Source of the DNA: Pseudorhodobacter sp. E13
Lineage (GTDB): Bacteria > Pseudomonadota > Alphaproteobacteria > Rhodobacterales > Rhodobacteraceae
Length of the DNA: 64,000 nucleotides
Assembly (NCBI RefSeq): GCF_003991405.1
Contig: NZ_RPEN01000159.1
Coordinates: 434,001-498,000, forward strand
Reading direction: 5' to 3'
Shown here: in pieces, positions 50,791-62,687 of the stretch
Numbering within the stretch: position 1 is the first letter of the stretch
How the letters are laid out: every line of letters starts with the position of its first letter
Made by a program: the position numbers and the translations under genes
The notes under the pieces: model-generated
The model's database searches: none
Told to the model about the DNA's origin: nothing
What the model saw: only the letters and a program-made list of their open reading frames with translations

Positions 50791-53556
50791 TTATTCCGCC
50801 GCGACCGCGCTTTCGGCTTTTTCCACCTTCACCGCAGAGAACTTGAATTCCGGGATTTTGCCGTAGGGGTCCACCGCCGGGTTGGTCAGAATGTTCGCCG
50901 CCGCCTCGACATAGGCAAAGGGCAGGAACACCATATCCTCGGCCACCGCCCGGTCCGCCCGCGCCATGATGGTGATGCTGCCGCGCCGCGTTGACAGCCG
51001 CACATGACCACCCGGTTCCACGCCCAAGGCCCGCAGGGTTTTCGGGTTGAGCGAGCAATTCGCCTCTGGCTCCACCGCGTCCAGCACCTTTGATCGGCGG
51101 GTCATCGACCCTGTGTGCCAATGTTCCAACTGCCGCCCCGTGGTCAGGATCATCGGATAGTCGGTATCGGGCACCTCATCCGGGGCGATCACCGATGCGG
51201 GCGTAAACTTGGCCCGTCCCCCGGCGCGCGGGAAGCCATCTGCGAACACAATCGGCTGGCCGGGGTCCGTTTCCGACAGGCTGGGATAGGTGACGCAGCT
51301 TTCCCGCTCCAACCGGTCCCATGTGATGTTGGACAGCGATTTCATGTTCAGCTTCATCTCGGCAAAGACCTGCGACGGGTGGGTATAGGTCCAGCCCAGG
51401 CCCAGCCGTCTTGCCAGTTCGGTCGTGATCGCCCAATCTTCGCGCGCCTCGCCCGGCGGTTTCACGGCAGGGCGGCCCATTTGCACCTGACGGTTGGTGT
51501 TCGTCACCGTGCCGGATTTTTCATAAAACGCGGCGGCGGGCAGGATGACATCGGCGTAATTGGCGGTTTCTGTCAGGAAGATATCCTGCACCACCAAATG
51601 CTCCAGCTTGGCCAGCGCCTCGCGCGCGTGGGTGACATCGGGGTCAGACATCGCCGGGTTTTCGCCCAGAATATACATGCCCTTGATATGGCCTTCATGC
51701 ACGGCATCAAGGATTTCGGTGACGGTCAGGCCCTTTTCATTGGAAAAGTCACCAGAGCCCCAGACCTCGGTAAAGGCGTTGCGGATATTGTCGGAAGTAA
51801 CGGTTTGGTAATCGGGCAGGAACATCGGGATCAGGCCCGCGTCAGAGGCACCTTGCACGTTGTTCTGGCCGCGCAGCGGGTGCAGGCCCGCGCCGGGGCG
51901 GCCCACCTGGCCCGTCATCAAGGCAAGCGAGATCAGGCAGCGGGAATTATCGGTGCCGTGGATATGCTGCGACACGCCCATGCCCCAGAAGATCATCGCG
52001 GCCTTGGCCCCGGCAAAGGTGCGGGCCACATCGCGCAGGGTATCGGCGGGGATGCCGCAGATACCTTCCATCTTTTCAGGCGCGAAATTGGCAAGATGCG
52101 CCTTTTCGGCTTCCCAATTTTCGGTATAGGCCTCGATATACTGTTGATCATACAGCTTTTCTTCGACGATCACATGCATGATCGCATTCAGCATCGACAC
52201 GTCAGAGCCGGGGCGGAATTGCAGCATATGGCTGGCGAAACGGCGCAGGCCAACGCCGCGCGGGTCCATCACGATCAGCTTGCCGCCGCGTTTGGTGAAT
52301 TGCTTGAAATAGGTCGCGGCAACGGGGTGGTTTTCCACCGGGTTCGCGCCGATCACAATCGCCACATCGGCATTTTCGATCTGGTTGAACGTGGCCGTCA
52401 CCGCCGCCGAGCCCACGTTTTCCATCAGCGCCGCCACGGAGGAGGCGTGGCACAGCCGGGTGCAATGGTCGACGTTATTGTGCTGAAAGCCTTGGCGGAT
52501 CAGCTTTTGGAAAAGATACGCTTCCTCATTGGAGCATTTGGCCGAGCCAAAGCCCGCAACCGCGCGGCCACCATCGCTGCCGCGCAGCCGCGCCATGCCA
52601 CCTGCGGCGAAATCCAGCGCCTCATCCCATGTCGCCTCGCGGAAATGGGTGAGCAGATTGCCGGGGTCGATATTCAGCCCCTTGGGCATATCCGGCTTGC
52701 GGATCAGCGGTTTGGTCAGGCGGTGGGGGTGGTGGATATAGTCAAACCCAAACCGCCCCTTGACGCAAAGCCGCCCTTCATTCGCGGGGCCGTTGATCCC
52801 TTCGACGAACTTCACCTTGCCGTCCTTGACCTTCAGGGAAACCTGACAGCCGACGCCGCAGAAGGGGCAGATGGATTTGACCTCCTCGTCGAAATCCTTG
52901 CTGTCGCCGCGCTGCTGATCGTCCAGCACGGTGGCGGGCATCAGGGCACCTGTGGGGCAGGCCTGCACACATTCACCGCAAGCGACGCAGGTGCTGGCCC
53001 CCATCGGGTCGGCCATATCAAAGGTGGGATAGCTGTCTTGCCCGCGGCCCGACATGCCGATCACGTCATTCACCTGCACCTCGCGGCAGGCGCGGACGCA
53101 CAACCCGCAGGAAATGCAGGCGTCAAGGTTCACGCGCATGGCGACATGGCTGTCATCCAGAAGCGGAATGCGGGATTTTTCCAGCTTGGGCAGGCGGTTG
53201 CCCTTGGCCCCGGTGGCCGCAACCATATCGGCCATATGGGAGGATGCATCATGCGCCGCCTCGGGTTGATCCGTCACCAGCATTTCCACCACCATCTTAC
53301 GGGCGGCAAGCGCGCGGGCGGATTTGGTATGCACCACCATCCCTTGCACCGGTTCGCGGATGCAAGAGGCGGCAAGCGTGCGTTCGCCCTCTACCTCCAC
53401 CACGCAGGCGCGGCAGTTGCCATCGGGGCGATAGCCGGGGCTTGGTTTGTGGCACAGATGCGGGATGATAAGCCCGCGACCATTGGCGACCTCCCAGATC
53501 GTCTGGCCAGTTTCGGCGGTGACTTCGCGGCCATCGAGGGTGAATGTAACCGACAT
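50791..53556 (-). CDS. fdsA: NAD-dependent formate dehydrogenase, molybdenum alpha subunit
   Basis: 921 residues; oxidises formate to CO2 at a bis-MGD molybdenum centre and passes electrons through iron-sulfur clusters to the fused beta/gamma subunit. N-terminal [2Fe-2S] ligands Cys35, Cys48, Cys51, Cys65; two ferredoxin-type clusters in CISCGLCVRACREV and CVACGECVQACPTGAL; the Mo-domain cluster in CPFCGVGCQV; and the active-site Cys in CTRLCHASSVAAL (about 367), not selenocysteine. C-terminal MGD-binding domain (VLTTGRQ-like ILTTGRQLEHWHTGSMTR). Start overlaps the stop of the fused subunit gene by one base (TGATG). Confidence 0.96.
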   Translation of the reverse strand: MSVTFTLDGREVTAETGQTIWEVANGRGLIIPHLCHKPSPGYRPDGNCRACVVEVEGERTLAASCIREPVQGMVVHTKSARALAARKMVVEMLVTDQPEAAHDASSHMADMVAATGAKGNRLPKLEKSRIPLLDDSHVAMRVNLDACISCGLCVRACREVQVNDVIGMSGRGQDSYPTFDMADPMGASTCVACGECVQACPTGALMPATVLDDQQRGDSKDFDEEVKSICPFCGVGCQVSLKVKDGKVKFVEGINGPANEGRLCVKGRFGFDYIHHPHRLTKPLIRKPDMPKGLNIDPGNLLTHFREATWDEALDFAAGGMARLRGSDGGRAVAGFGSAKCSNEEAYLFQKLIRQGFQHNNVDHCTRLCHASSVAALMENVGSAAVTATFNQIENADVAIVIGANPVENHPVAATYFKQFTKRGGKLIVMDPRGVGLRRFASHMLQFRPGSDVSMLNAIMHVIVEEKLYDQQYIEAYTENWEAEKAHLANFAPEKMEGICGIPADTLRDVARTFAGAKAAMIFWGMGVSQHIHGTDNSRCLISLALMTGQVGRPGAGLHPLRGQNNVQGASDAGLIPMFLPDYQTVTSDNIRNAFTEVWGSGDFSNEKGLTVTEILDAVHEGHIKGMYILGENPAMSDPDVTHAREALAKLEHLVVQDIFLTETANYADVILPAAAFYEKSGTVTNTNRQVQMGRPAVKPPGEAREDWAITTELARRLGLGWTYTHPSQVFAEMKLNMKSLSNITWDRLERESCVTYPSLSETDPGQPIVFADGFPRAGGRAKFTPASVIAPDEVPDTDYPMILTTGRQLEHWHTGSMTRRSKVLDAVEPEANCSLNPKTLRALGVEPGGHVRLSTRRGSITIMARADRAVAEDMVFLPFAYVEAAANILTNPAVDPYGKIPEFKFSAVKVEKAESAVAAE

Positions 53557-55241
53557 CAGATTTCCTCCGCGAAATGTTTCATCACCAGCTTGATCGGGTT
53601 GGGGGCGGCTTGGCCCAGACCGCAGATCGAGGCATCGACCATGACATTGGACAATTCGGTCAGCAGGGCCTGATTCCATTTCGGTGCTTGCATCAGCTTG
53701 ACCGCCTTTTCGCAACCGACGCGGCAAGGGGTGCATTGACCGCAGGATTCCGCCTCGAAGAATTTCAGCATGTTCAGTGCGGCATCGCGGGCGCTGTCTT
53801 GATGGCCCAGCACCACCACAGCGGCAGAGCCGATGAAAGTGCCATGCGGTTGCAGCGTGTCGAAATCCAGCGGGATATCATGCATCGAGGCAGGCAACAG
53901 GCCCGAGGATGGCCCGCCCGGTTGATAGGCCTTGAAACTGTGGCCTGCGGCCATGCCCCCTGCGGCCTTGATCACATCGGTGATGGTGGAGCCTGCGGGC
54001 AGAAGGTAGACCCCCGGTTTGGCCACGCGCCCCGACACGGAATAGGACCGCAGGCCACTGCGCCCGTTCAGCGCGGTGGTGTTCAACACCTCTGGCCCTT
54101 CCCGCACGATCCGCGCCACCCATTTCAGGGTTTCGACGTTATGCACCAGCGTGGGGCGATCAAAGATGCCGACCTGCGCCACAAAGGGCGGGCGGTGGCG
54201 GGGCAGACCGCGCTTGCCTTCGATGCTTTCGATCATCGCGGATTCTTCGCCGCAGATATAGGCCCCTGCCCCGCGCCGCAGGTCGATATAACCGGGGGCC
54301 ACGATGCCCGCCTGTTCAAGTGCCGCAATTTCATGGGCGAGGATATGCAGCACGGCGGGGTATTCGTCGCGCATATAGATGAAGCATTTATCCGCCTCGA
54401 CCGCCCAAGCGGCGATCAGCATACCTTCAAGGAACAGATGCGGCGTGCGTTCAAGGTAATGACGATCCTTGAAAGTGCCGGGTTCGCCTTCATCCCCGTT
54501 CACGGCCAGATAGCGGGGGCCGGGATTGGCGCGCACAAAGCCCCATTTCTTGCCCGAGGGAAAGCCAGCGCCGCCAAGGCCGCGCAGGCCGGAGGCCATG
54601 ACCATATCCTGCACCGCCTCCCAGTTGCCGCCCGCGCGCAACGCGGCCAGCTTTTTGTAGCCGCCTGCATGCTGATAGGCCGCGAGGGGTTCATAAAGCG
54701 GGATTTTCGGGGAAAATGCACGGGCCGCAATCGCTGCTTCGACCTTTGCAGGGGTGGCGTGGTCGATATGGTTATGGCCGATTTCCAAGGTGGGGGCGGT
54801 ATCGCACCGCCCCATGCAGGGCGCGCGCAGCACCCGCACCTTGGCCGGGTCATGGCCGTTTGACAGCGCCTCGAACAGCGCCTCGGACCCTGCGAGTTCG
54901 CAAGACAGGCTGTCACAGACGCGGATGGTCAGATCGGGGGGGGAGGCCTCTCCTTCGCGGACCGGGTCGAAATGGGCGTAGAAGGTGGCCACTTCCCAGA
55001 CCTCGGCCATGGAAAGGCGCATTTCTTCGGCCAAGGCCCGCAGATGGGCCGCTGAAAGATGGCCGTATTCATCTTGGATCAGATGCAGGAATTCGATCAG
55101 CAGATCGCGACGGCGCGGGCGGTCGCCCAGCAATGCCTTGACCTGATCCCATGCGGCATCGTCCAACTGGCGGCCCTTGGTCGCGCGGCGGCCTTTGCCC
55201 TTGCCGGATTTCCAGATGCCCTCTTGTTGATCCAGTGCCAT
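53556..55241 (-). CDS. fdsB: NAD-dependent formate dehydrogenase, fused gamma-beta subunit
   Basis: 561 residues joining two proteins that are usually separate. Residues 1-175 are FdsG (NuoE-like): [2Fe-2S] ligands Cys109, Cys114, Cys142, Cys146. Residues about 180-561 are FdsB (NuoF-like): FMN/NAD-binding GLRGLGGAGFPSG (218-230) and NGDEGEPGTFKDR, and a [4Fe-4S] cluster with Cys500, Cys503, Cys506 and Cys540. It moves electrons from FdsA to NAD+. The start at 55241 gives a charged N-terminus and excludes an unrelated 39-codon extension; no strong ribosome site is visible. First gene of the fds operon. Confidence 0.95.
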   Translation of the reverse strand: MALDQQEGIWKSGKGKGRRATKGRQLDDAAWDQVKALLGDRPRRRDLLIEFLHLIQDEYGHLSAAHLRALAEEMRLSMAEVWEVATFYAHFDPVREGEASPPDLTIRVCDSLSCELAGSEALFEALSNGHDPAKVRVLRAPCMGRCDTAPTLEIGHNHIDHATPAKVEAAIAARAFSPKIPLYEPLAAYQHAGGYKKLAALRAGGNWEAVQDMVMASGLRGLGGAGFPSGKKWGFVRANPGPRYLAVNGDEGEPGTFKDRHYLERTPHLFLEGMLIAAWAVEADKCFIYMRDEYPAVLHILAHEIAALEQAGIVAPGYIDLRRGAGAYICGEESAMIESIEGKRGLPRHRPPFVAQVGIFDRPTLVHNVETLKWVARIVREGPEVLNTTALNGRSGLRSYSVSGRVAKPGVYLLPAGSTITDVIKAAGGMAAGHSFKAYQPGGPSSGLLPASMHDIPLDFDTLQPHGTFIGSAAVVVLGHQDSARDAALNMLKFFEAESCGQCTPCRVGCEKAVKLMQAPKWNQALLTELSNVMVDASICGLGQAAPNPIKLVMKHFAEEI

Positions 55242-55323
55242 TGGCTTGCTCCTATATCGCGCGCGGTCTAGGCGCGGGTGTAGCGATCTGCCCGCGCAGG
55301 GTCGATGCGGCTGTTCCGTGCCG

Positions 55324-55342
55324 TGATAGATAACATCTATCA
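55324..55342. promoter_or_regulatory. LysR-type operator candidate in the fds/tusA divergent region
   Basis: Perfect inverted repeat TGATAGAT-AAC-ATCTATCA. Its core fits the LysR/OxyR half-site pattern ATAGNTNNNANCTAT at every fixed base. It lies 83 bases before the fdsG-fdsB start and 87 before the tusA-like ATG. LysR-type FdsR proteins control fds operons in other bacteria; no fdsR gene is seen nearby. Confidence 0.6.
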
Positions 55343-55428
55343 AAGCCTGCCGCTTCAAATGCTATCTTCTGTCATCCCTGCGTTCAAAAGGATGGACAGG
55401 CCCCGGCATTTCTCCTATCGAAAGCGGC

Positions 55429-55793: not shown

Positions 55794-57920
55794 TTAGTCG
55801 AACAAAGCGGCGTAGGGCAGAAAGCGGACGGGATCGCCGGGTTGGATGGTCAGGGCGTGATCGGGGAGTTCGACCAGCCCTTCGGCCCATGACAGGCCCG
55901 AAATGCGGCCCGAACCTTCGGAGGCGAACACTTCGACCCGGCCTTCGGCAGTCAATCGGGCGCGCAGATATTCGCGCCGCCCTGCCTTTTTGGATTTCGC
56001 GAAGGCGGCGGGCAGTGTCATCGCTTGCGGTATTGCCCAGCCCGCCCCCGACAATGCGGCCAGCGCCGGGCGGGCGAGGATGACCGCGCAGGTGAGTGCG
56101 GCGACGGGGTTGCCGGGCAGGCCGAACACCGGGACGCCTTGCCACAGCGCCAGCGCCAAGGGCCGCCCCGGTTTCATCGCAATGCGCCAGCTTGAGAGCG
56201 CCCCTTCGGCTGACAAAAGCCGCGAGACATGGTCTTCATCGCCGGCAGAGGCCCCGCCCGAGGTCAGGATAGCATCGCATTGCGTGGCGGCGCGGTTTAG
56301 CCTGTCACGGATCAGGGCGGTATCGTCGGGGCAGTGGCCAAGATCCACAGGCTTCATCCCCCAGCCTTGGGCAAGGGCCAGCAGCATCGGGCGGTTTGCG
56401 TCATAAATCTGATGCGGGGCGGCATTCTGGCTGACGATTTCATCCCCGGTGGACAGGACGCCGACCCGCAGGCGGCGATAAACCGGAACAGAGGCACGCC
56501 CGATGGCCGCGAGCAAGGCAAGATCTGGCGGGCGGAGCTTTTGGCCTGCCCGCAGCGCGGTATCACCTGCGCCGATATCTTCGCCTGCGCGGCGAGTGTT
56601 GGCGCGCGGCTTGATCGGGCCGTCAAAGGCGACATGGCGGGCGGTGGTGGCGCAATCTTCTTCCAGCACCACGGTGTCGACGCCTTCGGGCAGGATCGCC
56701 CCTGTCAGGATACGGATGGCCTGACCATGGGGCACCGCGCCTGCAAAGGGTTGGCCCGCGGCGGCACGCCCCTGCACCAAGGGCATCTGGCACAGGCCCG
56801 CGCCTGTGCTGGCATGGGCGAAGCCATAGCCATCCACCGCCGAATTGGCCTGCGACGGGTTGGCGCGCGCGGCCGTCATATCAGCGGCGAGAACACGGCC
56901 AAGCGCTTGGGCCAGGGAAATGGTTTCGGTGGTGGTGATGGGGTGCAGCGTTTCGCGCAGGCGCGTCAGCGCGGTATCCACCGGCACCCAATCCACCCCT
57001 TGCGGCATGGCAAAGCAATCGTTGCGCAGGCGCGGCGGGGTCAATGCGGGGGCAGGCGCGGCTGTCACCGCCGCTGCATTGCCCGCCCCCAGATACCAGC
57101 CTTCGGCCTCCAGCAGGTCTGTTGGCTCTGCGATCGTCATCAGCGCGTCAAGCCCGCCATTTTGTGCCATGGCAAGGAACGCCTCGGCATGGGTGCGGGT
57201 TTGCGCCTCATCCGGGGTCATGCCTGTGGCGACGAGGGCCGCGACCTCGGGTTTCAGAAGCGAGAGATAGGCCTCGGCGATCACCACGGGGGCTGCGGCA
57301 TGCGGTTCCAGCGGCCAGACCGCCACCACGCCGGGATGGGCGGCACGCAGGCGGTGCAGCATGGGAATTCCGGTCAGGGATTGCGCGCCCACGGCCCCGG
57401 CACCCGCCAGTTGCCACAAGGTCTTGGGTTGGAGCCCGTTTTCATGGCCCGCCGTCTCGGCCCGCCGAAAGGGAGAGATGCCCTTGGGCAGCGCAGGCTT
57501 GGTGCGCGGCAGGTCCGCAGTTTCCAGCTTTTGGCCGTTGCCCCAGAACGGGCCTTCGCCGGGGAAATGGCGGTTCATTTCGGCGGCGATGGCGCGGTAA
57601 TTGGTGCCGTTTTGCGGCGTGTCGGTGATGCGGGCGGCAAGCCAATCCCACAGGGCCAGCGCCTTTGGGCTGCCTGTCAACCGTTCGGCCAGACCGCGCG
57701 GCGCACCAAAGGCAAAATCGCAGGCCAGAAGCAGCCGCGCGCCGCTGCCCAGCGCCTCTGCGATATGGGTGGCCAGACGCGCCTCGGCGGCGTGGCGTGT
57801 GGCGATGTTTTCGGCCTGTGTGCCTTGTGGCGTGGCGCAGGCAATCCAGATCGAATCCTTTTGTGTGGTCGGCTTTCCGGCCGCCGACCAATCCACCACG
57901 ATCACCCGGTCAAAGCTCAT
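55794..57920 (-). CDS. moeA: Fusion of an unknown N-terminal domain with molybdopterin molybdenumtransferase MoeA
   Basis: 708 residues; usual MoeA is about 400. Residues about 300-708 are MoeA: NSAVDGYGFA, LTGAILPEGVDTVV, GVLSTGDEIV, TSGGASAGDEDHV and GLPGNPVAALTC. It inserts molybdate into adenylylated molybdopterin. Residues 1-295 (MSFDRVIVVDWSAAGKPTTQ; LLLACDFAFGAPRGLAERL; WPLEPHAAAPVVIAEAYLSL) are an extra domain that I do not recognise. The first 100 residues have Asp in the pattern of RNase H/DUF429-like folds (VVDWSA, CDFAFG), which is only a guess. Overlaps mobB by four bases. Confidence 0.9.
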   Translation of the reverse strand: MSFDRVIVVDWSAAGKPTTQKDSIWIACATPQGTQAENIATRHAAEARLATHIAEALGSGARLLLACDFAFGAPRGLAERLTGSPKALALWDWLAARITDTPQNGTNYRAIAAEMNRHFPGEGPFWGNGQKLETADLPRTKPALPKGISPFRRAETAGHENGLQPKTLWQLAGAGAVGAQSLTGIPMLHRLRAAHPGVVAVWPLEPHAAAPVVIAEAYLSLLKPEVAALVATGMTPDEAQTRTHAEAFLAMAQNGGLDALMTIAEPTDLLEAEGWYLGAGNAAAVTAAPAPALTPPRLRNDCFAMPQGVDWVPVDTALTRLRETLHPITTTETISLAQALGRVLAADMTAARANPSQANSAVDGYGFAHASTGAGLCQMPLVQGRAAAGQPFAGAVPHGQAIRILTGAILPEGVDTVVLEEDCATTARHVAFDGPIKPRANTRRAGEDIGAGDTALRAGQKLRPPDLALLAAIGRASVPVYRRLRVGVLSTGDEIVSQNAAPHQIYDANRPMLLALAQGWGMKPVDLGHCPDDTALIRDRLNRAATQCDAILTSGGASAGDEDHVSRLLSAEGALSSWRIAMKPGRPLALALWQGVPVFGLPGNPVAALTCAVILARPALAALSGAGWAIPQAMTLPAAFAKSKKAGRREYLRARLTAEGRVEVFASEGSGRISGLSWAEGLVELPDHALTIQPGDPVRFLPYAALFD

Positions 57921-58408
57921 AGGCCAACCTCGGCCAGGATGAAATCCGCGATGGCGGTTGTATCGTCCAGATCGAACAGCGGCACCGGCACATCGGGCTG
58001 CGTGTTGGAGGCCACGGCCCGGATGGTCGGGTTCTGCGGGCACAGCAAGGGGCGGCCGGTTTCGTGCCGATGCGCCTCGATCTTGGGGTGGGGCGCGGAT
58101 TTATAGCCTTCGATCAGGATCAGATCGACGGGGGACATACGGGCCAGCAGATCATCGAGCGTGGGTTCATCCGCCCCGCGCAGTTCCGTCATCAAGGCCC
58201 AGCGCACCGGCGAGGACACAAGCACCTGCGCCGCCCCCGCCTGACGGTGGCGGAAACTGTCGCGCCCCGGATGATCAATATCGGTGGCGTGATGCGCGTG
58301 TTTGAGGGTGGACACCGTAAAACCGCGACCCGTGATTTCGGCCACCAGCCGTTCCATCAACCCGGTTTTGCCTGCGTTCTTGTAGCCGGTGACGCCGTAA
58401 ATCTTCAT
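57917..58408 (-). CDS. mobB: Molybdopterin-guanine dinucleotide biosynthesis adaptor MobB
   Basis: 163 residues. P-loop GYKNAGKT (8-15), STLKHAHHATDIDHPGRDSF, and LILIEGYKSAPHPKIEAHR are the family signatures. GTP-binding helper that assists MobA or MoeA in cofactor delivery. Lies between mobA and the MoeA fusion with four-base overlaps on both sides. Confidence 0.95.
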   Translation of the reverse strand: MKIYGVTGYKNAGKTGLMERLVAEITGRGFTVSTLKHAHHATDIDHPGRDSFRHRQAGAAQVLVSSPVRWALMTELRGADEPTLDDLLARMSPVDLILIEGYKSAPHPKIEAHRHETGRPLLCPQNPTIRAVASNTQPDVPVPLFDLDDTTAIADFILAEVGL

Positions 58409-59016
58409 GCTTGCCTCAGGAGTGTTTCGGCGGCCTCGATATCTTCGGGCGTGTTGATATTGAAGAACGGATCGAACGGGGTGCTGGCAAAGGCGGCAAG
58501 GCCCGCGTCATGGCTTTGGGTCCAGATCACGATTTTGCGCAAGCCGCCTTGCAAGGCTGTGCGCAGATCATCGCGCAGCGCCACGGGCCAGAGGCCGAAG
58601 GTTGGTTGCCGCTGCATGCGCCCGGTTTCATCCGGGCTGGCAGCAAGGCACAGGCCGGACGGGCCTGCATGGGCCTGAAGCCGGGTGGCAAGATCCAAGG
58701 GAAAGAAAGGTGTATCGGCAGCGGCGGTGATGATGGCGGGGGCGCCAAGGCTTGCTGCCCAATCCAGCCCCGCCAGCACGCCTGCCAAGGGGCCGGGGTG
58801 ATCTGGCAGGCTGTCGGGCAGCACGGGTAAGCCGAATTCGGCCAGACGCGCGGCATCGCCATTGGCGTTGATGGCCAGCGGCGCGCATTGCGTTGACAGC
58901 CGCGCGATCACCCGGTCCAGCAACCGCTGCCCCGCCACCACGCGCAGGCCTTTGTCGCCGCCGCCCATGCGGGTGGCGCGCCCGCCTGCCAGTATGACGC
59001 CGGGAAGCCTAACCAT
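58405..59016 (-). CDS. mobA: Molybdenum cofactor guanylyltransferase MobA
   Basis: 203 residues. Nucleotide-binding LAGGRATRMGGGDKGL (9-24), ADTPFFPLDLATRL (metal Asp) and INTPEDIEAAETL. Attaches GMP to molybdopterin to make the MGD cofactor used by FdsA. Translationally coupled to mobB; its start overlaps the preceding membrane-protein gene by eight bases. Confidence 0.95.
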   Translation of the reverse strand: MVRLPGVILAGGRATRMGGGDKGLRVVAGQRLLDRVIARLSTQCAPLAINANGDAARLAEFGLPVLPDSLPDHPGPLAGVLAGLDWAASLGAPAIITAAADTPFFPLDLATRLQAHAGPSGLCLAASPDETGRMQRQPTFGLWPVALRDDLRTALQGGLRKIVIWTQSHDAGLAAFASTPFDPFFNINTPEDIEAAETLLRQA

Positions 59017-59548
59017 GCGCAGATTTCCAATCCATCAGCCGGGCACGAAAGCCTGCGCCGTCAAGGTCAGCGGGCAAGCAGTGATCGGGGATCACCAAGC
59101 GGCTGGCCCCGAACAACAGCGCCGTGCCACCCGCAACCGCATCAATCGCGGTGATGACCGGCCAGCCCAGCGTGCTGGACGCGTTGGCAGAGCGCATCGA
59201 AACCCCCGCCGTGTCGATGGTGGCATTGGTCACACCTTCCTGCGCTTCGAGTGCGGCAAGCAGGCCCAATATCTGAGCCATGAACCTGTGTCGATGCCAT
59301 TGCCAAAACGCGTTGATCGCCCAGCCCCCCAGCACCGCCGCGATCAGATAGGCAAGCGCGTCTTGCAAGCCAAAGCCAAGGCGCAGGACCACAATCGCCA
59401 ATCCCCCGAACACCCCCCCGCCCAGAAGCCCCAGACCCAGCTTTTGCCACGCGGGGCGACGCGGGCCTGCGCCAAGCGGCAAGGACAGTGCCGCGCGGGT
59501 AACATCCGCGTCAAAGACAAGCTCTAGCCGAAGTGGCGTGTCAGTCAT
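59009..59548 (-). CDS. YcxB-like membrane protein
   Basis: 179 residues with two adjacent membrane helices (LGLGLLGGGVFGGLAIVVL; AYLIAAVLGGWAINAFWQW) and a C-terminal YcxB-type beta-rich part (STLGWPVITAIDAVAGGTAL; SRLVIPDHCLP). Function unknown. Its start overlaps the fdhD stop by eight bases and it overlaps mobA at the other end, so it sits in the middle of the cofactor operon; whether it takes part in molybdenum use is open. Confidence 0.75.
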   Translation of the reverse strand: MTDTPLRLELVFDADVTRAALSLPLGAGPRRPAWQKLGLGLLGGGVFGGLAIVVLRLGFGLQDALAYLIAAVLGGWAINAFWQWHRHRFMAQILGLLAALEAQEGVTNATIDTAGVSMRSANASSTLGWPVITAIDAVAGGTALLFGASRLVIPDHCLPADLDGAGFRARLMDWKSAHG

Positions 59549-60413
59549 CCCCTGCCCCTTTGCGGCCATGTTTGCGGCCCTCATCGGGTTGCGCGTTGGG
59601 GTCGGCATCGCGGATCAGGCGGTCTTCTCCGCTCAGGCAGATGAACCGCTGCCCGCGCATCCGGCCGATCAGCGTCAGACCCACTTGCCGCGCAATCTCG
59701 ACCCCCCAAGCGGTGAAACCGGACCGAGAGGCCAGCACGGGAATACCCATCAGCGCGGTTTTGATCACCATTTCCGAGGTCAGACGCCCGGTGGTATAGA
59801 GGATTTTATCCGCCGCCGGGATGCCATGCTGAAACATGAAACCGCTGATCTTATCCACCGCGTTATGGCGGCCCACATCTTCCATATAGACCAGCGGCGT
59901 ATCGCCTTGGCACAGGGTCGTGCCATGGATCGCCCCCGCCTCCAGATAAAGCGAGGGGGTGGTGTTGATCTTATGCGCCAGCGCATAAAGCCAAGAGCTG
60001 CGGACCGGGGTGGCAGGCAGGGTCAACCCCTCCAGCCCTTCCATCATATCGCCGAACACCGTGCCCACCGCACAGCCCGAGGTGCGGGTTTTCTTTTTCA
60101 CCTTGTCTTCATAGCTGGTCTGGCGCTGCGTGCGCACGACCACGGTTTCAATCTCATCATCGTAGTCCACGCCCGTCACCACATCATCGGGGCGCAACAT
60201 GCCCTGATTGCGCAGAAAGCCAAGCGCAAGATATTCCGGGTAATCGCCGATGGTCATCGCGGTCACGATTTCCTGCGCGTTCAGATAGATGGTCAGCGGG
60301 CGTTCCTCGACCACGGAAATCACGGTTTGCGCCCCGGTGTGGTCTGTCCCGGTGATGGCGCGGGTCAGGCGCGGATCGGTGGGATTTGGCAGGATCGGGA
60401 AATCAGGCATCAT
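59541..60413 (-). CDS. fdhD: Formate dehydrogenase sulfurtransferase/accessory protein FdhD
   Basis: 290 residues. Needed to make formate dehydrogenase active: takes sulfur from a cysteine desulfurase and sulfurates the bis-MGD cofactor. Conserved EERPLTIYLNAQEIVT, EYLALGFLRNQGML, TSGCAVG (Cys114), GAIHGTTLC, VYMEDVGRHNAVDKI, GRLTSEMVIK. The E. coli protein has a Cys-x-x-Cys in the loop; here only the first Cys remains, which fits my recollection of FdsC-type homologues. First gene of the minus-strand cofactor operon. Confidence 0.95.
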   Translation of the reverse strand: MMPDFPILPNPTDPRLTRAITGTDHTGAQTVISVVEERPLTIYLNAQEIVTAMTIGDYPEYLALGFLRNQGMLRPDDVVTGVDYDDEIETVVVRTQRQTSYEDKVKKKTRTSGCAVGTVFGDMMEGLEGLTLPATPVRSSWLYALAHKINTTPSLYLEAGAIHGTTLCQGDTPLVYMEDVGRHNAVDKISGFMFQHGIPAADKILYTTGRLTSEMVIKTALMGIPVLASRSGFTAWGVEIARQVGLTLIGRMRGQRFICLSGEDRLIRDADPNAQPDEGRKHGRKGAGDD

Positions 60414-60476
60414 CGGGTGCTTTCATCGGCTTGCCGCATCTTGTATGCCAGTGGCAGCAGTTGCAAGAGGGCGGCG

Positions 60477-61004
60477 ATGCTCGGCTATGTCACAGGTGGG
60501 GAACGGGGGCAGATGGATCTTCTGCTGGCCGATACAGCGGCGCGGCTTCGGGCCGAGGGCTGCGCACTGGCGGGCGTGGTGCAGGTGAATGAGGAATTCG
60601 ACCCCGCGCGCCCCTGCCACATGGATTTGCATGTGCTTAACGGCACCAGCGTCATCCGCATCAGCCAAGACCTTGGCACCCTGTCCAAAGGCTGCCGCCT
60701 TGACCCGTCGGCGCTGGAGCAAGCGGTGGGGTTGGTGGCGCAGGCGCTGGAGGCCGGGCCTGCCTTGCTGATCATCAACAAATTCGGCCGGCAAGAGGCC
60801 GAAGGGCGCGGTTTTCGCCCGTTGATCGGGCAGGCACTGGCCGCAGCAGTGCCGGTGCTGACAGCGGTAAGCGCAGGCTACCTTGACGCATTCGAACGCT
60901 TTGCCGAAGGCATGGGCACCGCCCTGCCCTGCGAGACAGACGCGGTTTTGGCGTTTTGCCATGCCCAGATACGGCACCAGATACGGGCCCAGACAGAGGA
61001 ATAA
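60477..61004 (+). CDS. DUF2478 protein
   Basis: 175 residues (MLGYVTGGERGQMDLLLADT). P-loop-like N-terminus in a NTPase-like fold, ARPCHMDLHVLNGTSVIRIS, and a conserved LLIINKFGRQEAEGRGFRPL. The family is often found next to molybdenum uptake or nitrogenase genes. Here it is divergent from fdhD, so a role in molybdenum handling is likely but not shown. The ATG at 60477 follows AGAGG. KDG kinase follows after three bases. Confidence 0.85.
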   Translation: MLGYVTGGERGQMDLLLADTAARLRAEGCALAGVVQVNEEFDPARPCHMDLHVLNGTSVIRISQDLGTLSKGCRLDPSALEQAVGLVAQALEAGPALLIINKFGRQEAEGRGFRPLIGQALAAAVPVLTAVSAGYLDAFERFAEGMGTALPCETDAVLAFCHAQIRHQIRAQTEE

Positions 61005-61952: not shown

Positions 61953-62687
61953 ATGCGCCTGATCGCCAACCGCCAAGCCTATGTGCAGGGCATGAAGGAT
62001 TGCAGCCCGTTTATTGTGATCGTGGTGCCTTTCTCGGCACTGTTCGGGATGGTGGCCACCGATGCCGGGCTGAACATTCTGCAAGTGGTCGCCATGTCGG
62101 CCATTGTGATCGCCGGATCGGCCCAGTTCACCGCGCTCAGCCTGTTGCAAGAGGGCGCGCCGGTGTTCGTGGTCCTGCTGGCCTCGCTTGCGGTCAACAT
62201 GCGGATGGCGATGTATTCGGCCGCCTTGGTGCCGCATATTGGTGGCGCATCGCTGGGGCTGCGGATGCTGATGGCCTATGTGATGGTCGACCAGACCTAT
62301 GCCGTCTCGGTGCAAACCTATGAGGCGAACCCGGCGATGCCGCAGGACGCAAAGATCAGCTATTATTTCGGCTGTATCACAGTTGTCTGCCTGCCTTGGT
62401 ATATCTGCACCTTCCTTGGGGCCTTGCTGGGCCAAGCGGTGCCTGCCTCGCTGTCGCCGGATTTCGCGGTGCCGGTTTGTTTCATCGCGCTGTTCGCGCC
62501 GATGCTGCGCAGCTTGCCGCATCTGGTGGCGGCGGGTGTGTCCATCGCGGCGGCGGTGGTCTTTTCCGGGCTGCCGTGGAATTTCGGCCTGATCGTTGCG
62601 GCGCTGCTGGCCATGGTTGCGGGCGCGCAGGTCGAATTCTGGCAGCGGCGGCGGGCTGCACGGGCAGCGCAGGTGTCGCATGATTGA
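61953..62687 (+). CDS. azlC: Branched-chain amino acid exporter, large subunit AzlC
   Basis: 244 residues with six to seven membrane helices; the family signature KDCSPF-like MKDCSPFIVIVVPFSALFG and IAGSAQFTALSLLQEG, then ASLAVNMRMAMYSAALVPH, are clear. Works with AzlD to export branched-chain amino acids or analogues. Follows the KDG kinase by 21 bases; weak ribosome site. Overlaps azlD by eight bases. Confidence 0.94.
   Translation: MRLIANRQAYVQGMKDCSPFIVIVVPFSALFGMVATDAGLNILQVVAMSAIVIAGSAQFTALSLLQEGAPVFVVLLASLAVNMRMAMYSAALVPHIGGASLGLRMLMAYVMVDQTYAVSVQTYEANPAMPQDAKISYYFGCITVVCLPWYICTFLGALLGQAVPASLSPDFAVPVCFIALFAPMLRSLPHLVAAGVSIAAAVVFSGLPWNFGLIVAALLAMVAGAQVEFWQRRRAARAAQVSHD

What the first reader, a model, noticed from the sequence alone, without database searches (positions are those of the whole stretch)
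55794..57920. MoeA fused to a 295-residue domain that I cannot identify
The extra N-terminal domain is nearly as large as MoeA itself, is encoded in the same frame without a low-complexity break, and sits in a mobAB operon. A domain recruited to the molybdate insertion step could bind nucleotide, a sulfur donor, or the Mo supply. The DUF429/RNase H-like hint (VVDWSA, CDFAFG) is weak.
Basis: partly seen in the sequence, partly recalled or inferred. Interest (0 to 1): 0.55.

Follow-up and report, generated by a model that had tools for sequence, protein, structure and literature searches.

The report
RNase H-like domain on cofactor enzyme
An enzyme that puts molybdenum (or tungsten) into its cofactor carries an extra domain that looks like an ancient nucleic-acid-cutting enzyme, and related bacteria have attached the same unstudied domain to molybdenum- and vitamin-B12-making proteins again and again, so it may do an unknown step in building such cofactors.

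Summary
Window 55794-57920 (minus strand) encodes one 708-residue protein. Residues 312-702 are a complete MoeA. Residues 1 to about 290 match no Pfam family at E up to 1, but match the "unknown domain" half of NCBIfam NF011066 (MobB/unknown fusion, E 3e-56). I call it X.

X is very probably an RNase H-like domain, distantly related to DUF429: strand and helix order of a medium-confidence model, invariant acidic residues at the expected places, weak fold matches of that kind, and bridging sequences. No single test is decisive.

X occurs in 177 of 295 genomes of the host's family. It is fused to MoeA, MobB or precorrin-8X methylmutase, or lies beside mobA, mobB, moeA, coxL, cobU, cbiC or rarA, or stands alone. 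So it is not a molybdenum-only domain. The MoeA it joins is a second MoeA paralogue bearing two residues tied to tungsten preference in Methylorubrum MoeA1.

Best reading: an accessory domain of metal-dependent-hydrolase type recruited to late cofactor assembly; substrate unknown. My searches found no paper giving a function.

The parts
57051..57920 (-). Domain X, residues 1 to about 290: RNase H-like domain, DUF429-related, 'unknown domain' of NF011066; candidate active-site residues D10, D68, E216, D237, E273
55797..57029 (-). MoeA part, residues 298-708, MoeA1-type (KPGR ... GNPVA); stop codon at 55794-55796
57917..58408 (-). mobB; its stop overlaps the X~moeA start (ATGA)
58405..59016 (-). 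mobA, MobA-like NTP transferase
59541..60413 (-). fdhD, formate dehydrogenase accessory sulfurtransferase
53556..55358 (-). fused FdsG-FdsB-type beta subunit of a formate dehydrogenase (start codon uncertain); context of X~moeA in 13 of 26 loci
50791..53736 (-). FdsA-type molybdopterin alpha subunit; by sequence the likely start is near 53556 (MSVTFTLDG)

Best explanation
Identity (about 0.9): residues 1 to about 290 are an RNase H-like domain, an uncharacterised relative of DUF429, fused to the N-terminus of a second MoeA paralogue that, by its operon, works with MobB, MobA and FdhD to build the metal-bis-MGD cofactor of formate dehydrogenase. Mechanism (inferred, about 0.35): X keeps a carboxylate, metal-binding active site (D10 on strand 1, D68 at the end of strand 4, E216 at the end of strand 5, D237 at the start of the last core helix, plus E273) and hydrolyses a phosphate ester or phosphoanhydride of a nucleotide-bearing intermediate at the hand-over between MobB/MobA and MoeA; an example would be clearing wrongly loaded or unmetalated nucleotidylated pterin. 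In B12 operons it would do an equivalent clearing job. Shown: conservation, recurrent fusion and adjacency, and (at medium confidence) the fold order. Not shown: any activity, substrate or metal.
For: Model strand and helix order b-b-b-a-b-...-a-b-a, mean pLDDT 66.8, pTM 0.73. Solved-structure matches are mostly RNase H-like (RuvC, terminase nucleases, MutS, YqgF, RNase HI, integrases), the rest largely the related actin-like ATPases and polymerase exonuclease domains (fold classes recalled). Ten columns are invariant in 73 diverse members, among them D10, D68, E216, E273. In 111 of the 128 tree members (12 of the rarA clade and five distant or long rows left out) D68, E216, D237 and E273 are 111/111 and D10 110/111. 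Profile link to one DUF429 member (L126) scores 32.05 against a maximum of 22.4 in 100 shuffles and 24.97 in 97 natural controls. L153 and L156 match both the X profile (1.5e-14, 6.6e-9) and DUF429 (0.0035, 0.0029, below the cut-off). Of 130 loci, 83 are beside or fused to mobA, mobB, moeA or coxL and 10 to cbiC or cobU. X takes the place between MobB and MoeA, which in 9 of 9 examined X-free loci with a long mobB frame are fused directly. 23 of 23 X~MoeA genomes tested hold another MoeA.
Against: Pfam DUF429 is not matched by the window protein or listed for any of 73 members. Profile-profile comparison with a 14-row DUF429 alignment is weak (3%), and of the 13 DUF429 members other than L126 only two score above the best natural control, barely. 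Fold matches have Foldseek E at best 0.21 with poor superposition and Z at most 6.8, under the tool's own caution line of 8; residues 127-177 of the model are unreliable. A nucleotide-related substrate fits MobA and CobU but not CbiC. 28 of 130 loci show no such neighbour (21 of them with at least 2.5 kb of flank) and 9 lie beside rarA. X is dispensable to the pathway as such: 25 of 40 genomes without an X match hold MobB.
Confidence: 0.4

Rival explanations
1. X is a non-catalytic scaffold or nucleotide-sensing domain that holds MobB, MobA and MoeA together in the late assembly relay; the conserved carboxylates bind a ligand or metal but do not hydrolyse.
For: X sits between MobB and MoeA as MobB~X, X~MoeA or separate genes; X-free relatives fuse MobB directly to MoeA; in Methylorubrum MoeA1 and MobB interact by two-hybrid assay (PMC13197769, passages). 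RNase H-like proteins for which nuclease activity had not been corroborated exist (YqgF, Tex: PMC3985635, passages).
Against: The acidic residues are more strictly conserved than a scaffold would seem to need, and X pairs with CbiC, CobU or nothing where there is no MobB-MoeA pair to bridge.
Confidence: 0.3
2. X is a true nuclease acting on DNA or RNA; its operon places reflect regulation of these genes (for example on a cofactor riboswitch) or chance placement.
For: RNase H-like fold order and acidic residues; the distant clade lies after rarA, a replication-associated recombination gene (9 of 130 loci; Azospirillum); PMC3985635 predicts DUF429 proteins to be active nucleases (passages).
Against: Repeated in-frame fusion to soluble cofactor enzymes (MoeA, MobB, CbiC) is hard to explain by gene regulation; no phage record matched X.
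Confidence: 0.15
3. X helps the MoeA1-type branch choose tungstate over molybdate or handle the tungsten form of the pterin.
For: All 37 X~MoeA proteins with a readable motif (of 38) and 13 of 13 MoeA in a locus with a separate X carry the Arg and Ala that bias Methylorubrum MoeA1 to tungsten; fused-beta formate dehydrogenase downstream in 13 of 26 loci.
Against: 9 of 9 X-free MobB~MoeA fusions carry the same residues, so they mark the MoeA branch, not X; X also lies in B12 operons, beside CoxL or alone.
Confidence: 0.1
4. X supplies the missing MPT adenylyltransferase (Mog/MoaB) activity for its MoeA.
For: Fusions of adenylyltransferase and insertase domains exist in eukaryotes (Cnx1, gephyrin; recalled).
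Against: MoaB is present above the curated cut-off in the window's own genome and in 30 of 32 X-bearing genomes tested, that one included; X has no MoCF_biosynth match.
Confidence: 0.03

Closest known systems
NCBIfam NF011066 / PRK14495, MobB/unknown domain fusion protein
   Same: The unknown half (profile 166-447) matches residues 2-285 of X, E 3e-56; 66 of 73 X domains match it
   Different: There X is joined to MobB, here to MoeA; the whole-protein cut-off (596 bits) is not reached (188 bits)
DUF429 (PF04250), RNase H-like superfamily, clade D with RuvC, YqgF and terminases (PMC3985635)
   Same: Order of strands and helices, acidic residues on strands 1 and 4, EGW motif near the C-terminus in one member (L126), bridging sequences
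   Different: No DUF429 match listed for any of 73 X; X has an extra stretch with GPFWGN and an invariant Arg152
Methylorubrum extorquens MoeA1-MobB-FdhD tungsten branch (PMC13197769)
   Same: A MoeA paralogue with the same Arg/Ala pair; here mobB, mobA, fdhD and a formate dehydrogenase beside it
   Different: No such extra domain in the sections and passages I read (the word 'domain' occurs 0 times in its main text); tungsten use in the window organism is untested
MobB~MoeA fusion (NF011060 / PRK14491)
   Same: The MoeA part scores best against this model (412 bits, under its cut-off of 532); X-free genomes of the host's family carry such fusions
   Different: In the window MobB is separate and X takes its place at the MoeA N-terminus

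Membership tests
RNase H-like superfamily | Core order beta1-2-3, helix, beta4, helix, beta5, helix | tested here: met
   Model elements E5-12, E23-30, E33-39, H42-59, E63-67, H179-194, E199-202/E212-216, H238-253; medium confidence, pLDDT 66.8, pTM 0.73
RNase H-like superfamily | Acidic residues at the ends of strand 1 and strand 4 and in the last core helix | tested here: met
   D10 and D68 invariant in 73; D237, at the helix start, in 66 of 73 and in 111 of 111 of the non-rarA set, but in only 5 of 12 of the rarA clade
RNase H-like superfamily | Significant structural match to a member | tested here: inconclusive
   Best Foldseek E 0.21; best Z 6.8 over 129 residues, rmsd 4.3; matches mostly of this superfamily
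RNase H-like superfamily | Metal-dependent phosphodiester hydrolysis | not testable with these tools
   needs purified protein
DUF429 (PF04250) | Score above the Pfam cut-off | tested here: not met
   No match at E up to 1 in the window protein; DUF429 not among the families listed for 73 members
DUF429 (PF04250) | Common ancestry by profile comparison | tested here: inconclusive
   L126 score 32.05 against control maxima 22.4 and 24.97, but 14-row profile comparison 3% and most other members no better than controls; two bridging sequences match both, DUF429 below cut-off
NF011066 (MobB/unknown fusion) | Whole-protein score over 596 bits, with MobB and X in one chain | tested here: not met
   188 bits; only the X half is present
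MoeA molybdotransferase | MoeA_N, MoCF_biosynth and MoeA_C domains above cut-off | tested here: met
   134.9, 97.2 and 46.7 bits
MoeA1-type (tungsten-biased) insertase | Arg and Ala at the M. extorquens Arg291 and Ala312 places | tested here: met
   AMKPGRPLALALWQGVPVFGLPGNPVAA in the window protein; spacing of 21 residues as in MoeA1; placed by motif and spacing, the MoeA1 sequence itself was not aligned
MoeA1-type (tungsten-biased) insertase | Inserts tungstate | not testable with these tools
   needs metal analysis

The most novel reading that the evidence does not exclude
X is a new enzyme class of cofactor assembly: an RNase H-fold, metal-dependent hydrolase turned from nucleic acids to a small-molecule cofactor intermediate, serving as a clearing or proofreading module shared by the molybdenum/tungsten and the cobalamin pathways and plugged onto whichever enzyme hands the intermediate on (MoeA, MobB, MobA, CbiC, CobU).
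Probability: 0.2. Interest if true: 0.75.

Novelty: new variant of a known kind. Interest (0 to 1): 0.45.

Why it matters
Late molybdenum/tungsten cofactor assembly has a short, well-known parts list (MogA/MoaB, MoeA, MobA, MobB, FdhD). Yet 177 of 295 genomes tested of one large bacterial family carry X, many of them at exactly that step, where the records seen label it 'Glp' or 'hypothetical protein'. The same domain in cobalamin operons suggests a chemical problem shared by two unrelated cofactors. Point mutants of four residues in a tractable Rhodobacterales strain would test this directly, and the outcome also bears on making tungsten formate dehydrogenases for CO2 reduction.

Tried and rejected
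Separate translation of X in the window: one uninterrupted frame with no sign of it; in relatives X is often a separate gene. Mobile or phage origin: no phage record matched and the viral-contig scans that ran found no relative. X as a substitute for MoaB/Mog: disfavoured. X as a molybdenum-only domain: rejected by CbiC fusions, CobU and rarA neighbours, and G599, which has X but no MoeA_N and no CbiC match. X as the determinant of the tungsten-type residues: rejected, because X-free MobB~MoeA has them too. One origin of the CbiC link: only weakly rejected (8 rows, AU p 0.043, rows chosen after seeing the tree; the long row L202 was left out). PHROGs gave two stray single-member matches and the PDB sequence searches nothing useful. 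The full-length fusion model was unusable (pLDDT 37).

Mended counts: a first context count had a parsing fault with negative distances, corrected. One search counted distinct motif strings, not proteins; one search repeats it per distinct protein (22 copies held in two loci dropped) and is the one quoted. The position numbers printed are 3 too high and are corrected here. Two of 130 X rows were too short for the tree.

The absence of a published function rests on these searches of an open-licence library only; one search was too loose to inform. Papers used: PMC13197769 (outline, passages, and the sections on maturation genes, tungstate preference and discussion), PMC3985635 (passages), PMC8123684 (passages; not used further).

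Full report
What is there. The open frame at window 55794-57920 (minus strand) encodes 708 residues in one piece, starting at an ATG that overlaps the stop of mobB. Residues 312-702 are a full MoeA. Residues 1 to about 290 (here 'X') match no Pfam model at E up to 1, but match the second half of NF011066, 'MobB/unknown domain fusion', over residues 2-285 (E 3e-56). So the domain was already catalogued, as an unknown partner of MobB. On the same strand lie fdhD, a small hypothetical gene, mobA, mobB, X~moeA, and then a formate dehydrogenase with a fused beta subunit. Three of seven plasmid records with X are annotated 'gephyrin-like molybdotransferase Glp' and a separate X in Ruegeria 'hypothetical protein', so the domain is hidden in annotation.

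Distribution. The nearest named relatives are Pseudorhodobacter species. X was found in 24 of 61 relatives, in 177 of 295 genomes of the host's family, and in 29 of 299 genomes drawn from the phylum (28 of 249 with a profile); each count includes the window's own genome. Seven plasmid records carry it, one of them Azospirillum; no phage record matched. In the capped family list, 79 of 150 rows run to query residue 304, that is, into MoeA (counted by eye).

What fold. An alignment of 73 X domains has ten invariant columns: D10, W11, D68, P74, R152, V177, G178, P203, E216, E273. This is the RNase H-like order. Foldseek found no significant match (best E 0.21, a glucokinase with poor superposition), but most of its list is RNase HI, retroviral integrase and Argonaute structures. 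VIA-align put a terminase nuclease and RuvC first at Z 6.8 and 6.6, with MutS, Spt6, YqgF, Cas nucleases and some actin-like ATPases and polymerases below. The tool warns that Z under 8 may mean only a common arrangement, so the fold rests on the agreement of topology, active-site placement and kind of matches.

Relation to DUF429. Pfam's DUF429 is not among the families listed for the 73 members, and comparison with an alignment of 14 DUF429 proteins is weak (3%). One DUF429 protein with an EGW ending (L126) aligns with the X profile with a score of 32.05, against a maximum of 22.36 in 100 shuffles of itself and 24.97 in 97 unrelated proteins of similar length; of the other 13 DUF429 proteins, two score 25.8 and the rest below 23. 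Two distant X proteins, L153 and L156, match the X profile at 1.5e-14 and 6.6e-9 and DUF429 at 0.0035 and 0.0029, below its cut-off. A 2014 survey placed DUF429 in the RNase H-like superfamily beside RuvC, terminases and YqgF and predicted nuclease activity from residues on strands 1 and 4 (PMC3985635, passages). X is best called a DUF429-related RNase H-like family, not a DUF429 member.

Neighbours. In 130 genomes, one locus each, I classed the nearest relevant gene on the same strand. The sample is not random: I fetched loci that were not fused to MoeA on purpose, and outgroups. X~MoeA 32, MobA beside X 21, MobB beside X 14, MobB-X-MoeA as separate genes 11, MobB~X 4, CoxL beside X 1; that is 83 linked to molybdenum cofactor genes. 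X~CbiC 7, CbiC beside X 2, CobU beside X 1; that is 10 linked to cobalamin. RarA beside X 9. None of these 28, of which 21 have at least 2.5 kb of flank on both sides. The domain calls for CbiC, CobU, CoxL and MobA-like partners rest on Pfam for the examples scanned, the rest on BLAST against marker proteins. On a quick tree of 128 domains the contexts are mixed: X~MoeA needs 18 changes (at least 9 forced by strong branches), X~CbiC 5 (at least 3). The rarA-linked clade is separate and lacks D237 in 7 of 12 members, while in 111 members outside it (five distant or long rows also left out) D68, R152, E216, D237 and E273 are all 111 of 111 and D10 is 110 of 111. G599 has X but neither a MoeA_N nor a CbiC match. 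X is therefore a portable domain with a strictly kept set of acidic residues, drawn most often, in this sample, to late molybdenum cofactor assembly.

Which MoeA. All 23 X~MoeA genomes tested (of 32) hold at least one further MoeA_N protein; the window's genome has one on another contig. In M. extorquens, MoeA1 with MobB and FdhD is needed for the tungsten formate dehydrogenase, while MoeA2 serves molybdenum, and Arg291 and Ala312 of MoeA1 bias it to tungsten (PMC13197769, sections read). Counted per distinct protein, the same Arg/Ala pair occurs in 37 of 38 X~MoeA proteins (the 38th, L007, is a fragment without the motif), in 13 of 13 MoeA in a locus with a separate X and in 9 of 9 X-free MobB~MoeA. 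Of 32 other MoeA proteins fetched, 21 have Lys/Ser, 4 Lys/Ala, 3 Arg/Ala, 1 Arg/Ser and 3 gave no motif; by the coordinates, two of the three Arg/Ala ones (L273, L274) also lie beside mobB. So X joined the MobB-linked, MoeA1-like branch; the residues mark that branch and not X. Whether these organisms use tungsten is not known. Formate dehydrogenase genes follow in 13 of 26 X~MoeA loci; in 20 of the 26 about 14 kb downstream was held, in six only 5.5-8 kb.

How it may work. MobB and MoeA are fused directly in X-free relatives; where X is present it takes the place between them or rides on one of them. An RNase H-like domain with an intact carboxylate set, placed where nucleotidylated pterin is handed over, most plausibly hydrolyses a phosphate bond there. 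MobA and CobU, both guanylyltransferases, as further partners fit; CbiC, which handles no nucleotide, does not. I hold this at about 0.35, a scaffold or sensor role at 0.3 and a nucleic-acid role at 0.15. X is not needed for the pathway as such: 25 of 40 genomes taken as X-free (one search lists no match for them) have MobB, against 35 of 40 X-bearing ones. It does not replace MoaB, which is present above cut-off in 30 of 32 X-bearing genomes, the window's own included, and in 24 of 31 X-free ones.

Verdict. The domain is catalogued but uncharacterised, its place across two cofactor pathways seems unreported in the papers I could search (calls named in Tried and rejected), and its activity is open.

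Noticed in passing
window 61953-62687 (+), and 25 of 73 X loci with at least 2.5 kb of flank: An azlC gene (amino-acid exporter family), in several loci followed by what looks like azlD, lies divergent and close upstream of X or its operon, even where X stands alone (L086, L170, L192, L194). Among 26 X~MoeA loci, azlC was found in 9 without formate dehydrogenase genes and in none with them, but the window itself has both.
   Followed up: partly
window 60414-61004 (+): A DUF2478 gene sits divergent to fdhD; the same family lies upstream of fdhD in Salipiger.
   Followed up: no
window 59009-59608 (-): A small hypothetical gene (weak YcxB-like hit, E 0.18) between fdhD and mobA, overlapping fdhD; Ruegeria TM1040 also has a hypothetical gene at that place.
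   Followed up: no
L202 (G483), L155: A very divergent X is fused to precorrin-8X methylmutase behind cbiX in another family of the class, so the cobalamin link is old or repeated.
   Followed up: partly
G011, G021, G068, G077, G103 and G028, G070, G075, G080, G081, G087, G097, G099: moaB lies about 10-18 kb from mobB or X in these genomes of the family, by the coordinates: a wider conserved cofactor neighbourhood.
   Followed up: no
L092, L102, L103, L205, L207, L108: A distant X clade follows rarA (replication-associated recombination protein A) in Azospirillum and other alphaproteobacteria; it may be a nuclease of a different role.
   Followed up: partly
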